From NCBI RefSeq assembly GCF_932294415.1, contig NC_065536.1, forward strand, positions 16,179,974 to 16,243,973: 64,000 bases of DNA. Direction: 5' to 3'. Positions within the stretch are counted from its first letter, which is position 1. Each line of letters begins with the position of its first letter. The position numbers and the translations under genes are program-made. Under the pieces are notes generated by a model. The model was not told the DNA's origin. It saw only the letters and a list, made by a program, of their open reading frames with translations, and ran no database searches. Positions 1,020 through 7,094 of this stretch are shown here, one piece after another. Origin of the DNA: Quercus robur (lineage: Eukaryota; Streptophyta; Magnoliopsida; Fagales; Fagaceae).

Positions 1020-1400
1020 AGTGCTAGGCGTGGATAAATAGTATTTCAAGTTTTCAACAATGGCCTATTGATGTTATTAATATATTTGCAATGATTAAAA
1101 TATCCCATCGCCATCAAAATTTAATGGGTGTTCTTCCTCCCTTCTTCCTTCCTTTTGGGTCCTTGATTTTGAGTATGAAAGCATAGGCATAGTAAGAGAT
1201 TCAACTACCATGAGGCCCCAGAGTTTTTTTTTTTTAATAGTATATAGTAAATTATTTTATTGTATAAAAAATTAAAATTTAACGTTTAGACTTCTAAAAA
1301 TTACAATGAATTCCCTTTCAAAGAAACCCCAAAAATAGAAATTACTCGCAAGTTTAAAATGTAAGTTTAGAATTATAACATTTTTTTTTTCAAATATAAG
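441..1400. other. AT-rich intergenic DNA with a small hairpin and a TA microsatellite
   Basis: No gene is visible. A perfect 11-bp inverted repeat, CTCATCACATG and CATGTGATGAG with a ~10-base spacer, lies at about 943-974. It is followed by a TG/TA microsatellite at about 980-1018. Several A and T runs are present. Confidence 0.5.
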
Positions 1401-1624
1401 TATAATGTCTATATCATTGAAACCTAAATTTTAAGATAAATTTTTGAATGTTTATTATTTTTATTGGCTTTTTAGGGCCTATCTCTAATTTTTAATGTCT
1501 ATTTTGTTTGTATTTTTTAACCCAAAACTAAAGATTTTGGACCAAAAAATAAAAAAAATAAAAACATACTTTTTAACTCAAAAATTAAGGGGAAAAGTGA
1601 AATTTTGAGCAAAAAACGAAAAAG

Positions 1625-1745
1625 GCAACCTACAGACCAAAATGGACCAAAGTGGACCGACACGGACCAAATAGTCCCAGGTGGATCAAAATGAACCGAA
1701 TGAACCAAAGTGGACTGAATGGATCAAATTGAACCAAAATGCTAT
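1625..1745. repeat. Degenerate decamer repeat tract (TGGACCGAAG-like), locus 1
   Basis: A run of loosely conserved 9-12 base words of the form tggaccaaag, tggaccgac, tgaaccgaa and tggactgaa. Related tracts occur at 5170-5300, 11575-11620 and 12060-12345. Translations of these tracts give spurious FGPF/WSV-type repeats that are not a protein. Confidence 0.6.
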
Positions 1746-1858
1746 GCTGTTGTGGCTTAAAGGGAGCTGCAACAATAAAGGCTAAGTTTTAGTTTTTAGA
1801 TAGTATATAGATAATTAGATATAGATGATTTGAACCTTCAACTTTAACGACAAGCAGG

Positions 1859-1973
1859 TAACAAGAGTTTTATAATTCAACTGATTGACATCTTATATTT
1901 TCAAGGGAGATATCTATGGTTTAAATCTCTCTACAACCCAACTATCGAATTATTGAATAATTAAAAAAAAAAA
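1859..1973 (+). mobile_element. tRNA-derived SINE in duplicated unit, copy 1
   Basis: A Pol III box A-like segment (ttataattcaactgattgac, about 1869-1888) is followed about 30 bases later by a box B-like segment (atggtttaaatctc). The unit ends in an A-rich tail at 1962-1973. The direct repeat CAAGCAGG flanks it at 1851-1858 and 1979-1986, consistent with a target-site duplication. A diverged, internally deleted version is at the same place in copy 2 (about 5415-5530). Confidence 0.6.
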
Positions 1974-2138
1974 TGCAGCAAGCAGGGCAGGGGAAGCATA
2001 GCATATGGGGGCTATTGTGTTTTTTTTTTTTTTTTTTTTTGGAGAATAGGCTATGGTGTTAAAGGTAGTATAATTGTGCTTGCCTAGCCTTTCAATTAAT
2101 ACAATTTAGTTAACTAGACACTTGCGATTAGCCTGAAG

Positions 2139-2191
2139 TTCGCACATCGAACTAACATAAATGAAGAGACAGGCGCAAGGGGGTATAAATA
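2139..2191 (+). promoter_or_regulatory. Plant snRNA-type promoter (degenerate USE plus TATA), U1 copy 1
   Basis: TTCGCACATCG at 2139-2149 matches the plant snRNA upstream sequence element RTCCCACATCG at 9 of 11 positions. TATAAATA is at 2184-2191. The gap is 34 bases, the spacing expected for Pol II-transcribed plant snRNA genes (Pol III types are closer by one helical turn). The TATA box starts 33 bases before the inferred RNA 5' end. Confidence 0.6.
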
Positions 2192-2216
2192 TGTAGCACT
2201 ATTCAAGGTGAAAAAC

Positions 2217-2370
2217 AAACTTACCTGGACGGGGTCTATGTTTGATCATTAAGGATCATGTCCTAGGTTAGTGACCTCCATTGCACATAAAGGAGGGGTG
2301 CAAACCTAAGGTCTTCCCAAGTGGAAGAGCCTACGTCATTATTTGTTGCTATGGGGGCTTCGGCCCCTGC
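2217..2370 (+). ncRNA. U1: U1 spliceosomal snRNA-like gene or pseudogene, copy 1
   Basis: The sequence has U1 snRNA features throughout. The 5' segment contains ACTTACCTG, which pairs with 5' splice sites. It is followed by ggacggggtc, a stem-loop I loop reading gatcattaagg, cctaggttagtgacctccattgcac, cctaaggtcttcccaagtggaagagcctacgtcat, an Sm-type site (atttgt, about 2341-2346) and a terminal GC hairpin with a ttcg loop. The usual U1-70K loop, gatcaugaag in U1 generally, has one change here. The last stem-loop is shorter than in the usual plant U1. The upstream element is degenerate, so expression is uncertain. A second copy lies 3.6 kb downstream. Confidence 0.8.
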
Positions 2371-2372
2371 CC

Positions 2373-3554
2373 AATTTCAGTCTTAAATATTTTGGACATT
2401 TAAATGTTAATGTATTTTCACAATAATTTGTTGAAATTTTTCTGTGACTCATTTGTATTTCTATATTGTTTTATGGTAATTGATGTTATTAGTATATAAG
2501 GAATTAATTTTAATTATACTGATATCAATGACTCCGAGTAGAAGTAGCAAACATAGAAATTTAAGCATCGTATAGTTATTATTATTAATTAAAATGATAA
2601 CAAATTGAATAAAATTATACAAACTAATATATAATTATTATATGTAATTTTTTATAGTAAAAGGTCAAAGGAAAACATCAATGAGAAGCAGGGACCAACA
2701 AAAGAGCACATTTATGTGGGTGCATTAATGGATATGGTTATAAAAATTAGAATTTTACGTAGGATAGTCAGATCAAATCATAGGATTTTATCAAGAATAC
2801 TAATATTATAATTTATGTAAAGAAACAAAGTGAAAATTCACCTATAGTGAAGATATAGTGATAATAAAGGAAAAACTTGGGTCCAGTGTTCATTGCATCG
2901 GACCTATTGTGATAATGACACTTGCCAACTTTTGGTTACATGTTATCATCTTAACGAACTCAACTCAAATATGATAATGAATTTTGTTAATGCTTTCTTA
3001 TCTCCCATGAGTGCAAGTAGAAGAAAAATATAAAATATCATGATTAATTTTTTATTTATAAAAAATAATAAATTGATGTCTTTAATTATCTTAGAAATAT
3101 AATACAAATTTTAATTTGTAATTAAAAATAAAAGATTAATTTCAATCAACTTTGAAGAAAACAAACAAAGAAAATACAGACATTCCTTAACAAAATTATT
3201 GACGATGTCTATCGGAAAGCCAATCAATAGAACCCATAGATTTTAGTATTTTACCGTCAAACATCTCTTGTGAACCACCTAAAGATGGAGTGCATGTCTG
3301 GTATCTATTTTGAAGCAGCACTTTTTCAATAAAACAGTCCATTTTCAAGAGGATGAAAAAATAAGTTATTTGACCTCAATTAAACTTCAAAATCCAATCA
3401 AAAGATTGAAAGAAAGTTTTTCTAAGTAGAAAAGTAGGTGGGATAAGATCAAATATAAATTTGTTTGGGCTTGATGCCTTGATATGAAGTGGAACGCACA
3501 AGTGATCAACTGTCAATAACAAATGGAGGCTAGAGGATGCATGGTTGCACAAGT
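2373..3554. other. AT-rich intergenic DNA, no gene seen
   Basis: Both strands show only short, AT-rich, stop-broken frames. I see no conserved motif or element ends. Confidence 0.5.
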
Positions 3555-3878
3555 AGCCGGAGAACAAACATTAGAAGAAAATCTAAGTAATTTTATCAAG
3601 ACTTTAATAATATAATAGTGTAGAAATCATATGTCCGTGTGTGGATTTGTTCACAAACGTATAAATTTTGAATTGTAATAATGAGAAAATATATTATAAC
3701 ACAAAACTAAGAGAGAGAGAAAAAAAAAAACTACGGGTGTAATGAAAAATTATTTCACTTGCAAACACATAAGCCGGAGAACAAAATTTAGAAGAAAATC
3801 TAAGTAATTTTATCAAGACTTTAATAATATAATAGTGTAGAAATCATATGTCCATGTGTGGATTTGTTCACAAACGTA
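3555..3878. repeat. 217-bp tandem duplication (second copy interrupted by a solo LTR)
   Basis: The 107 bases at 3555-3661 recur almost exactly at 3772-3878. The following ~110 bases of unit 1 (3662-3771) reappear after the LTR at about 4662-4757. The original structure was therefore two 217-bp units in tandem, the second later split by the 781-bp solo LTR. This gives an independent check on the LTR boundaries. Confidence 0.8.
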
Positions 3879-3880
3879 TT

Positions 3881-4661
3881 TGTGGGGCCCAATAATTTAT
3901 GGGCCAGGCCCACTTGCTCAAGGGGAGTCCAAAGGCCCAAGCCGAAGAAGGCTATGGCCCAAGCTCAAAAATATAAAGCACAAAATGGCCCGGAGATGCA
4001 GCCGAGGACAGTTCAGTCCTCGGCAGACCCAAAATTCCATTGAGAAGAGGGGTAAAAAAGGTATAGGAACAAACTTGAAAGAAGATCTAAAATATCTCGG
4101 GAAAGTTGCCCTTACTACCCCTCCCAGATAAGACTCTGCACCTAACAGAACCGGATTCTTCGGCTTTATCAACCACCCCCAACGATTTTGGGATTAGACT
4201 GACGGGACAAATATCAGTCTTAGAAAGGTTGACCCTACACGTGGACGAAGGACAGCGAACGTAGGCTAGTATAAAAGAAAATGTAAAGTAATCAGGAAGG
4301 AGAGGATGGCCAAAAAGTAGAGCCTCCCATCCTACCTCCGGGGAAAGACTCCAGGGGTGAAAACACTTTAACAATGTATGCACACCGCAAAAAAACCCAC
4401 CGCCGGGTAACCGGGGGAAGAGCCTAATGCTCCTCGGACAAAGTCCGAGGAGTCCAATCCCTCAGGTTACGAAGCTGTAGAGCTTGGATGTTCAGGTTGA
4501 ACTCTTTTTCTACATGAGTTCGCCTAAAATCAAGTCCGGACCATCGCCCCGTAATCAAAGGCAAGCCTTTTAAGCCCACTCTCTACAAATCATATTGTGA
4601 GGGATCTTTCATGTGCGAGCCCAACATCATTCTTGGGCCGTTAAATAATCGTGTCCCTAAA
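3881..4661 (+). mobile_element. Solo LTR (781 bp) with 5-bp target duplication
   Basis: The element begins TGTGGGGCCC and is bounded by the direct repeat GTATT (3876-3880 and 4662-4666). Removing it with one GTATT restores the tandem duplication it interrupts. It carries a TATA-like tataaaag at about 4270 and a strong hairpin ctcctcggac...gtccgaggag near 4432-4453, and it is rich in GGCCCA motifs. The 3' end (cctaaa) is not a canonical CA. No internal retrotransposon region is present. Superfamily cannot be assigned from the LTR alone. Confidence 0.65.
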
Positions 4662-5414
4662 GTATTAATCTCAAATTGTAATAATGAGAAAATTATAACA
4701 CAACAAAAAAAAAAAAACTACAAGTATGATGAAAAATTATTTCACCTGCAAACACATTATACTCATCACACCCTAGGTATTTTGCGATTGGAAAATGTAG
4801 TAATCTCAAATTATAATAGATGCAAATTATTAACTTTTTGTAAAAAAAAAAAAATAGAAGAGCCTCTAACCACACGCTTACATGTGTGCTCTGAGGCTAT
4901 TTTGTGTGTGTGTATATATATTTTTAAAAATATATGCATAATGCCTATATCATTGAAACCTAAATTTTAAGATAAAATTTTGAATGTTTTAACATTTTTA
5001 TTGCTTTTTGAGGGCCCATATATCTAATTTTTAATGTCTTTTTTGTTTGTATTTTAAAGCCAAAATCTAAAGATTTTGGCCCAAATAAAATAAAATAAAA
5101 TTTCATACTTTTTAAATCAAAAAGGGAAAAATGAAATTTTGAGCAAAAAAAGAAAAAGGCAACCTATAAATCAAAATGGACCGAAGTAAACCAAAGTGGA
5201 CTGAATAGACCAAACAAAAAGTGGATCGAGATAGACTGAATAGGCCGAAGCGGACCAAAATAAACCTAATGAACCGAAGTGGATTGAATTGAACCGAAAT
5301 CCTACGCTTATGTGGCTCAAAGAGGGAGTAATAACAATAAATACTAGACTTTAACTTTTAAATAATATATAAATATAGTTGATTTGAACCTTCAACTTTA
5401 ACACGGAAAATAGG

Positions 5415-5530
5415 TAACAAGTATTTTATAACTCAATTGGTTGCCCATGGTTGAAATCCTCTCATCACAACTATCGAATTATCAAATAATTTTTTTTAAA
5501 AAAAAGAAAAAAGAAAAAAAGAGAAGAAGA
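5415..5530 (+). mobile_element. SINE remnant in duplicated unit, copy 2
   Basis: Matches the SINE at 1859-1973: taacaag start, ttataactcaattggttgc box A-like segment, ccatggttgaaatcc box B-like segment, caactatcgaattat and an A-rich tail. The region between the boxes is shorter than in copy 1, indicating an internal deletion. Confidence 0.5.
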
Positions 5531-5779
5531 TGCAGCAAGCAGGGCAGGGGATGCATAGCATATGGGGGCTATAGTGTTAAAGGTAGTATAATTGAGCCTG
5601 CCTGCTTTCAATTAATACAATTTTTTTTTTTATGCATTTCAATTAATACAATTTAGTTTAACTAGACACTTGCGACTAAAAACACTGATAGATGTTAACC
5701 AGTTGAACTATAAGAATTTTAACAAGTTTTTATAAGGTACATAACCACGACAACTTACCTCTTCCCCAGTCAGCTTTGA

Positions 5780-5831
5780 ATCCCACATAGGTTAAACATG
5801 ACATAAGAGAGACAAACAAGATGTATAAATA
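5780..5831 (+). promoter_or_regulatory. Plant snRNA promoter (USE plus TATA), U1 copy 2
   Basis: ATCCCACATAG at 5780-5790 matches the plant USE RTCCCACATCG at 10 of 11 positions. TATAAATA is at 5824-5831, 33 bases after the USE, which is Pol II-type snRNA spacing. The TATA box starts 31 bases before the inferred RNA start. Confidence 0.7.
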
Positions 5832-5854
5832 ACCAGTAAGCAGCAATTAACAAT

Positions 5855-6009
5855 ACACTTACCTGGACGGCGTTTATGGGAAACCAAGAATGCCCATGAC
5901 CTAGGTCGGTGACCTCCATTGCACTTATAGGAGGGGCTCACTCCTAAGGTCTCGCCAAGTGGGAGAGCCTACGTCATTATTTGTTGCACTGGGGGCCTTC
6001 GCCCCCTGC
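5855..6009 (+). ncRNA. U1: U1 spliceosomal snRNA-like gene or variant, copy 2
   Basis: Retains ACTTACCTG for 5' splice-site pairing, cctaggtcggtgacctccattgcactt, cctaaggtctcgccaagtgggagagcctacgtcat, an Sm-type site (atttgt, about 5979-5984) and a perfect terminal stem gggggc-cttc-gccccc. The promoter elements are close to consensus. AGTTTAA at 6018-6024 matches the plant snRNA 3' box AGTNNAA just downstream. Stem-loop I is altered: the loop reads roughly aaaccaagaa instead of the gatca-gaag U1-70K site. It could be an expressed variant that no longer binds U1-70K normally, or a pseudogene with a preserved promoter. Confidence 0.8.
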
Positions 6010-6071
6010 CAAGTACTAGTTTAAGAATTTTGCTTTGACACGGTTAAATACTAATTTTATATCATCCAAAC

Positions 6072-7084
6072 GGCGAAAATGGGTAATTACCCATAAAAAG
6101 CAAACTATATAGTTAAGAGGACCGGTTTACAAACTATATAGATTTTTAGCAACTCGAGCCTTAAAGGCTCGATTTTGGGCCCCTAAATCGAGCCTCTGAT
6201 GCTCGATTTTCATGGGTTGTTCGTCTCTGATTTGGCACTTCTCCCAGGTGGCGTCTACATGGAAATCGAGTCTCTAAGACTCGATTTACATTTAAAAAGA
6301 AAACAAAAAAAAACCACAAGGGCAGCACCAACGTGTTCATCAGAGAAGAGAAAAAAAAAAAAAAAAAAAAAAACCCAGAGAAGAAGAAGGTGTTCATCAG
6401 AGAAGAAAGAAAAAAAAAAAACTCGTGCGACCTGGGTTCGCCGCGCGACCTGGGTCGCGGTGCGACCTGGGTTCGCCGCGCGACCTGGGTCGCGGTGCGA
6501 CCTGGGTTCGCCGCGCGACCTGGGTCGCGGTGCGACCTGGGTTCGCCGCGCGACCTGGGTTCGCCGCGCGACCTGGGTTCGCCGCGCGACCCAGGTCGCA
6601 CCGCGACCCAGTTCGCGCGGCGACCCAGGTCGCACCGCGCGACCCAGGTCGCACCGCGACCCAGGTCGCGCGGCGACCTGGATCTATCGCGCGCGGCCTG
6701 TGTCGCCGGCCTGGATCTGGTGCGGCCTGGGTCAGCTTGAGCTGATCTCCAATTCTTCTTCTTCTTCTTCTCTTTCTTTTTTTTTTTTTCTTTCTTTCTG
6801 CGTTTTTTTCCGCTGTTTCTGCATTTTGGGTTGCATTTTGGGTCATTAATATTTTATTTTTGGGTTAGAAATCGAGTCTTAGAGACTCGATTTCCATGTA
6901 GACGCCACCTGGAAAAAGTGCCAAATCAGAGACGAACAACCCATGAAAATCGAGCATCAGAGGCTCGATTTAGGGGCCCAAAATCGAGCCTTTAAGGCTC
7001 GAGTTGCTAAAAATCTATATAGTTTGTAAACCGGTACTCTTAACTATATAGTTTGCTTTTGATGGGTAATTACCCATTTTCGCC
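6072..7084. mobile_element. Mutator-like foldback element (1,013 bp) with ~220-bp inverted arms
   Basis: The left arm (6072-about 6290) begins GGCGAAAATGGGTAATTACC. The right arm (about 6866-7084) is its reverse complement, ending at ttttcgcc. The 10-bp repeat TCATCCAAAC flanks the element at 6062-6071 and 7085-7094, a target duplication of the size made by Mutator-like elements. The arms contain nested smaller palindromes (ctcgagcc...ggctcgag, aaatcgagtct...agactcgattt). No transposase is encoded, so it is non-autonomous. The core is a CpG-dense minisatellite. Open frames here come from the repeat, not from a gene. Confidence 0.85.
6423..6700. repeat. CpG-rich minisatellite inside the foldback element
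   Basis: About nine units carrying gacctggg, alternating ~18-bp (gacctgggttcgccgcgc) and ~17-bp (gacctgggtcgcggtgc) forms, run to about 6590. About five units in the opposite orientation (gcgacccaggtcgc) follow to about 6680. The switch in direction means that even the core can fold on itself. Base composition is unlike the AT-rich surroundings. Confidence 0.85.
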
Positions 7085-7094
7085 TCATCCAAAC

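What the first reader, a model, noticed from the sequence alone, without database searches (positions are those of the whole stretch)
1400..6024. Pair of variant U1 snRNA genes in a duplicated 1-kb unit
Two U1-like genes 3.6 kb apart each keep ACTTACCTG, the middle stem-loop sequence and an Sm-type site. Each also has a plant snRNA promoter with USE-TATA spacing of 33-34 bases (Pol II type). The copies share upstream sequence including an old SINE, so they arose by duplication. Variant U1 genes can alter splice-site choice, and such genes are often missed in plant annotation.
Basis: partly seen in the sequence, partly recalled or inferred. Interest (0 to 1): 0.7.

Follow-up and report, generated by a model that had tools for sequence, protein, structure and literature searches.

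The report
Two decaying U1 snRNA gene copies
These look like two extra, worn copies of a plant gene for U1, the RNA that marks where introns start; they keep their start signals but have lost the usual hairpin that holds a key protein, so they are probably relics or weak variants rather than new splicing regulators.

Summary
RF00003 hits 2217-2369 (W1, 110.7 bits) and 5855-6007 (W2, 88.0 bits), gathering score 69.5; no other family passes in the window. Each has a USE and TATA box 34 or 33 bases apart, the only two such arrangements on either strand, and a 3' box (W2 exact, W1 one mismatch). The genome holds at least 34 U1-like loci, 15 in a cluster about 1.05-1.27 Mb away. The functional reading is weak. 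Both copies lose 3 of 11 stem-loop I pairs (the U1-70K site), tied worst of 34. Their Sm-like site is off that of the best copies, and stem-loop IV is short. The 5' end that reads splice sites is unchanged, so altered 5' splice-site pairing is not expected. The gene body differs as much as the upstream block (28/153 against 88/657), though control pairs are mixed. Against plain decay, key motifs are spared and, on one of two alignments, the gene differs less than its promoter. The shared upstream is mostly two dispersed repeats. Best reading: transcribable but probably unstable or non-functional U1 paralogues. Ordinary.

The parts
2217..2369 (+). U1 snRNA-like gene W1
   Evidence: RF00003 110.7 bits, model 1-166
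5855..6007 (+). U1 snRNA-like gene W2
   Evidence: RF00003 88.0 bits, model 1-166
2139..2149 (+). W1 upstream sequence element (TTCGCACATCG, 2 mismatches to RTCCCACATCG)
2184..2191 (+). W1 TATA box (TATAAATA), 34 bases after the USE
5780..5790 (+). W2 upstream sequence element (ATCCCACATAG, 1 mismatch)
5824..5831 (+). W2 TATA box (TATAAATA), 33 bases after the USE
2232..2264 (+). W1 stem-loop I: 8 of 11 pairs, loop GATCATTAAG
5870..5902 (+). W2 stem-loop I: 8 of 11 pairs, loop AACCAAGAAT
2338..2348 (+). W1 Sm-like site ATTATTTGTTG
5976..5986 (+). W2 Sm-like site ATTATTTGTTG
2372..2385 (+). W1 3' box (1 mismatch to CA(N)3-10AGTNNAA)
   Evidence: consensus from a passage of PMC5079582
6010..6024 (+). 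W2 3' box (exact match)
1397..1812 (+). Dispersed repeat, left part of the shared upstream block (W2 counterpart begins at about 4930-4938)
1862..1973 (+). SINE-like dispersed repeat in the shared block
   Evidence: one search shows that it is dispersed; the name SINE is a reading
1974..2130 (+). Proximal shared sequence, found only at W1 and W2 apart from one 53-base match elsewhere (counterpart about 5529-5678)
5676..5779 (+). Extra sequence between shared block and USE in W2, absent in W1

Best explanation
W1 and W2 are two DNA-duplicated, promoter-bearing paralogues of the plant U1 snRNA gene family that are probably past their functional life. If transcribed (Pol II, USE plus TATA, ending at the 3' box), the RNA would keep the 5' end that pairs with 5' splice sites and the U1A loop. 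It is predicted not to form the standard stem-loop I that holds U1-70K, and it carries an off-consensus Sm-like site, so I expect poor snRNP assembly, failed 3' maturation and decay. Shown: homology, promoter and 3'-box matches, lost stem-loop I pairs, altered Sm letters, divergence counts. Inferred: transcription, loss of U1-70K binding, instability.
For: Stem-loop I keeps 8 of 11 pairs in each copy; 20 of 34 loci keep 11, ten keep 10, one keeps 9, and only L026, W1 and W2 have 8. The standard stem-loop I would be worth -1.6 (W1) and -3.2 (W2) kcal/mol against -15.2 in L001, and both prefer other hairpins. W2 also breaks 2 of 12 pairs in stem II and 1 of 8 in stem III. The gene body differs at 28/153 sites and the upstream block at 88/657; for contrast L001/L002 gene 1/161 with promoter 15/76, and L005/L007 gene 2/161 with flanks 97/1480. 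Bit scores are 22nd and 32nd of 34. In human cells Sm-motif variants of U1v15 suffice for a 3'-end processing defect, and a section title of the same paper names mutations in the Sm and U1-70K motifs (PMC10801842, passages).
Against: Promoter parts survive at the right spacing and W2's 3' box is exact. On the stricter alignment USE plus TATA differ at 3/19 sites and the rest of the promoter at 28/57, p 0.014, and the gene (27/135) differs less than the promoter (31/76), p 0.002. No difference between W1 and W2 falls in 28 motif sites (5' nt 3-11, U1A loop, Sm), p 0.0008, although the pair was noticed by these motifs. W1 breaks fewer pairs (3) than random placement of its changes gives (7.0-7.5), p 0.016-0.027; W2 does not (6 against 7.3-7.4, p 0.33-0.36). 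The rate yardstick is not clean: a high-scoring pair (L006/L012, 143 and 140 bits) shows no constraint (gene 11/160, flanks 22/326, p 1), and a variant-Sm pair (L014/L019) does (gene 9/163, downstream 8/33, p 0.0023). Lone stem-loop I folds of L021 and L026, and whole-molecule folds of L019, L021, L026 and L027, also depart from the standard fold. No RNA data could be examined.
Confidence: 0.6

Rival explanations
1. W1 and/or W2 are expressed, stable minor U1 isoforms working as ordinary or tissue-restricted U1, tolerant of a weak stem-loop I.
For: Promoter architecture and 3' box; motif conservation, and slower change than the promoter on the stricter alignment; W1 stems II, III and the four-way helix intact. 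[quoted passage not shown]
Against: Stem-loop I is tied worst in the family; the gene body does not change more slowly than the upstream block; the Sm-like site is off that of the best copies.
Confidence: 0.27
2. A specialised, U1-70K-free U1 variant: the RNA pairs with 5' splice sites without recruiting U1-70K and acts as a competitor or in 3'-end control, by analogy with human variant U1 RNAs.
For: Both copies changed stem-loop I by largely different substitutions while 5' end and U1A loop stayed intact; changes are somewhat enriched in stem-loop I, p 0.08-0.11 (W1) and 0.02-0.04 (W2). Some human vU1 snRNPs are said not to contain U1-70K (PMC5159530, passage).
Against: The enrichment is marginal and is equally expected from relaxed constraint; no conservation across species could be tested; the Sm-like site is weak.
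Confidence: 0.1
3. Retroposed U1 pseudogenes.
For: The genome has copies of that look: L029 and L031 end at the Sm site with GTATTTAACAATC on both sides; L016 and L032 are followed by A-runs.
Against: W1 and W2 carry promoters alignable with those of other U1 loci, and 3' boxes, have no A-tail, and share the upstream block, so they were copied as DNA.
Confidence: 0.02

Closest known systems
Plant U1 snRNA gene families (Arabidopsis: 14 copies, 10 judged likely active)
   Same: Multi-copy, divergent family; USE plus TATA promoter; some copies called pseudogenes (PMC545797, passages)
   Different: Here at least 34 U1-like loci, 15 in one stretch of about 222 kb; no U4 passed the gathering score in the window or in 20 other sources scanned, unlike the seven U1-U4 pairs of Arabidopsis
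Human variant U1 (vU1) snRNA genes
   Same: U1 paralogues; some vU1 snRNPs are said not to contain U1-70K (PMC5159530, passage)
   Different: Expression and function are reported there (abstract start in the listing), not shown here; here the 5' end nt 3-11 is unchanged
Human U1v15
   Same: U1 variant with altered Sm motif (PMC10801842, passages)
   Different: Instability is reported there, only predicted here; W1/W2 also have a broken stem-loop I
Tomato U1 gene candidates of 1989 (recalled; a search for them found nothing)
   Same: Recalled as several plant U1 genes with variants in similar stem regions
   Different: No detail could be compared

Membership tests
U1 snRNA (RF00003) | Covariance score at or over the curated gathering score | tested here: met
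   110.7 and 88.0 against 69.5 bits
U1 snRNA (RF00003) | 5' end ACUUACCUG pairing with 5' splice sites | tested here: met
   Intact in both; in 29 of 34 loci overall
U1 snRNA (RF00003) | Stem-loop I with U1-70K loop | tested here: not met
   8 of 11 pairs in each, loops GATCATTAAG and AACCAAGAAT, standard fold no longer preferred; protein binding itself not tested
U1 snRNA (RF00003) | Stem-loop II with U1A loop AUUGCAC | tested here: met
   Loop intact in both; 12 of 12 pairs W1, 10 of 12 W2
U1 snRNA (RF00003) | Sm site | tested here: inconclusive
   ATTATTTGTTG against ATAATTTGTGG in the best copies; binding not testable
U1 snRNA (RF00003) | 3' stem-loop IV | tested here: met
   A six-pair hairpin is predicted in each, weaker: -12.0 and -13.3 against -18.8 kcal/mol in L001 and L011
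Plant Pol II snRNA gene | USE and TATA box, 33-34 bases apart | tested here: met
Plant Pol II snRNA gene | 3' box CA(N)3-10AGTNNAA | tested here: inconclusive
   W2 exact; W1 one mismatch
Functional U1 gene | Gene body changes more slowly than flanks | tested here: inconclusive
   Not slower than the upstream block; slower than the promoter on one alignment, equal on a looser one
Functional U1 gene | Expressed, Sm-bound RNA | not testable with these tools
   No RNA data available

The most novel reading that the evidence does not exclude
W1 and W2 belong to a plant U1 class that has given up U1-70K binding but keeps splice-site pairing and its promoter, and so works as a U1 competitor or a 70K-free U1 snRNP.
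Probability: 0.08. Interest if true: 0.6.

Novelty: new member of a known kind. Interest (0 to 1): 0.2.

Why it matters
Multi-copy plant U1 families with divergent members are already described (PMC545797, passages), so two more are mainly of annotation value: they pass a standard Rfam threshold and would be annotated as U1 genes although the standard U1-70K hairpin is no longer predicted to form. The within-genome set of 34 loci is a usable panel for asking which sequence features predict U1 expression in a plant.

Tried and rejected
Retroposition of the pair: rejected (promoters, 3' boxes, no A-tail). Altered splice-site specificity: not supported, nt 3-11 canonical; nt 2 does differ (A in W1, C in W2, U in the consensus). 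A U1-U4 pair as in Arabidopsis: no U4 in the window. The shared upstream as one unique 1-kb segment: rejected, two dispersed repeats make up most of it. Sisterhood of W1 and W2: the gene-only tree supports it weakly (78/87), promoter plus gene puts W1 with L027 and L030 (96/87) but does not reject the pair (AU p 0.361). Four loci (L025, L029, L031, L032) were left out of the gene tree, and L016 as well from the second. The sequence-only alignment misplaced stems II and III against the Rfam structure; those counts were discarded and redone on the Rfam alignment for W1, W2 and ten other copies laid on W1's columns. One search left eight minus-strand loci unreversed and was redone. One paper search listed only irrelevant items. 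A passage look-up in PMC11489095 gave nothing used here. Transversion excess in the gene (9 transitions, 18 transversions, against 46 and 32 in the upstream block, p 0.026) is unexplained. Cross-species conservation could not be tested: the tool states that this genome has no relatives there.
Full report
Observation. Rfam RF00003 matches the whole model at 2217-2369 (W1, 110.7 bits) and 5855-6007 (W2, 88.0 bits); the gathering score is 69.5 and no other family passes in the 64 kb. Of 122 TATAAA words on both strands, only these two have a USE with 2 or fewer mismatches 23-35 bases upstream. The 3' box CA(N)3-10AGTNNAA, described as necessary for plant snRNA processing (PMC5079582, passage), is exact in W2 and one letter off in W1.

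Genome context. The window lies at C3:16179974-16243973 of a 785.7-Mb genome in 42 contigs. The same family search gives 34 matches there, 33 over the gathering score; 42 of 11774 first-look candidates were scored, so 34 is a lower bound. Fifteen lie at C3:17.23-17.46 Mb, about 1.05-1.27 Mb from the pair. The best three scores are 153-151 bits; W1 is 22nd and W2 32nd. The family holds canonical copies, copies with the Sm-like sequence ATTATTTGTTG (L014, L021, L023, L024, L025, L026, L033 besides W1 and W2), and copies that look retroposed (L016, L029, L031, L032). That the host is a plant is inferred from the promoters, not looked up.

Anatomy. The 5' end (nt 3-11) is canonical in W1 and W2, as in 29 of 34 loci in all, so no change in splice-site pairing is expected. 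Stem-loop I is the striking difference: 8 of 11 pairs in each, by largely different substitutions, with loops GATCATTAAG (W1) and AACCAAGAAT (W2). Twenty of 34 loci keep all 11, ten keep 10, L017 keeps 9, and L026 also keeps 8. The standard stem-loop I would be worth only -1.6 and -3.2 kcal/mol, against -15.2 in L001, and other hairpins are preferred. A caution: of the other copies folded, L021 and L026 also prefer another lone stem-loop I, and whole-molecule folds of L019, L021, L026 and L027 depart from the standard shape. On the Rfam alignment, 3 of 35 pairs are broken in W1 (all in stem I) and 6 in W2 (three in stem I, two in II, one in III). Stem-loop IV is shortened in both, to a predicted six-pair hairpin, but the shortened sequences differ, so one shared event is not shown.

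Constraint, results against function. W1 and W2 differ at 28/153 gene sites and 88/657 upstream sites (Fisher p 0.17 with the short downstream piece included). In the same analysis some canonical pairs show strong constraint: L001/L002 gene 1/161 with promoter 15/76; L005/L007 gene 2/161 with flanks 97/1480 (p 0.0045). Several variant pairs do not: L021/L026 gene 10/162 with flanks 95/1310; L014/L024 gene 6/146 with flanks 57/1544. The contrast is not clean: L006/L012, both high-scoring, show none (11/160 against 22/326, p 1), L010/L017 little (10/161 against 19/189, p 0.24), and the variant-Sm pair L014/L019 does show it (9/163 against 8/33 downstream, p 0.0023). Twenty-two pairs chosen by me were compared, not all possible pairs.

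Constraint, results for function. In a near-gapless alignment the promoters of W1 and W2 differ at 31/76 sites (27/80) and the gene at 27/135 (p 0.002), and within the promoter the USE and TATA are spared (3/19 against 28/57, p 0.014). With looser gap costs the promoter figure falls to 13/67 with 23 gap columns and this contrast vanishes. No difference falls in 28 sites of the 5' end, U1A loop and Sm region (p 0.0008; p 0.017 for 17 sites without Sm); since the pair was noticed by these motifs this is biased. Counted from L011 or L014 the same sparing gives p 0.08-0.09 (W1) and 0.03-0.04 (W2). Placing W1's changes at random breaks 7.0-7.5 pairs against 3 seen (p 0.027 from L011, 0.016 from L014); W2 shows no such effect (p 0.33 and 0.36). 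Other variants (L019, L020, L021) give values like W1's, so this may reflect constraint before the recent past.

The duplicated unit. The upstream block is shared, but 1397-1812 is a dispersed repeat: 38 further places among 40 candidates scored of 776, none of the other rows reaching past query position 436. The stretch 1862-1973 is a second dispersed repeat, SINE-like, with 37 further places among 40 candidates scored of 71; one more match covers only 2013-2062. So about 157 bases next to the promoters are nearly particular to the pair. On the stricter alignment, divergence is 5/89 in two aligned pieces of that proximal stretch and 78/513 in the rest of the block, then jumps to 31/76 in the promoter (p 3e-8 and 9e-7); the proximal pieces also differ less than the gene (p 0.003). 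W2 also has about 100 extra bases before its USE; a search with 5676-5854 found only itself, though that search also missed the other U1 promoters. Either the upstream blocks were homogenised or copied later than the U1 genes split, or the promoters changed unusually fast. This decides which yardstick of constraint is right: against the block the genes look unconstrained, against the promoters moderately constrained. I could not settle it.

Mechanism and verdict. I put 0.60 on transcribable but unstable or non-functional paralogues, 0.27 on minor expressed ordinary isoforms and 0.10 on a specialised 70K-free variant. The instability step rests on human work: Sm-motif variants of U1v15 suffice for a 3'-end processing defect (PMC10801842, passages), and a U1-70K-dependent pathway is described that enhances Sm assembly on U1 (PMC5159530, passage); its transfer to plants is inference. 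Arabidopsis has 14 U1 copies, 10 judged likely active, the active ones averaging 87% identity, with others thought to be pseudogenes (PMC545797, passages). The pair is therefore a new member of a known kind. I make no claim that this pair is absent from print beyond the searches, none of which named the organism.

Noticed in passing
3881-4661: Solo-LTR-like stretch between the two U1 genes, flanked by a 5-base repeat GTATT; 39 further copies at 90-98% identity among 40 candidates scored of 4649, several in pairs about 3.5-6 kb apart. Located and counted only.
   Followed up: partly
6062-7094: Element with 260-base terminal inverted repeats (90% complementary) and 10-base flanking repeats TCATCCAAAC, Mutator-like in form (family recalled), with an internal tandem array of CGCGACCTGGGT-type repeats; it begins about 60 bases after W2. 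The genome search for it did not complete.
   Followed up: partly
3555-3662 and 3772-3879: 108-base direct repeat, 97% identical, 217 bases apart, the second copy next to the solo-LTR-like stretch.
   Followed up: no
L029 1501-1632, L031 1001-1132: Two U1 copies cut off at the Sm site, with GTATTTAACAATC on both sides and similar flanks: one retroposed and truncated copy that was later duplicated would explain both.
   Followed up: partly
L020, L021, L023, L026, L028: A U1 subgroup with loop GATCCATAAG (or close) in stem-loop I and a GCAA-type loop in stem-loop IV; four compared pairs among L021, L023, L026 and L028 differ about as much in gene as in flanks (p 0.16-0.85), so perhaps recent non-functional duplicates.
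   Followed up: partly
L024 and L025: Two U1 loci 73.5 kb apart on C2, identical in gene, promoter and downstream sequence (1 difference in 1541 aligned sites): very recent duplication, both cut short in stem-loop IV.
   Followed up: no
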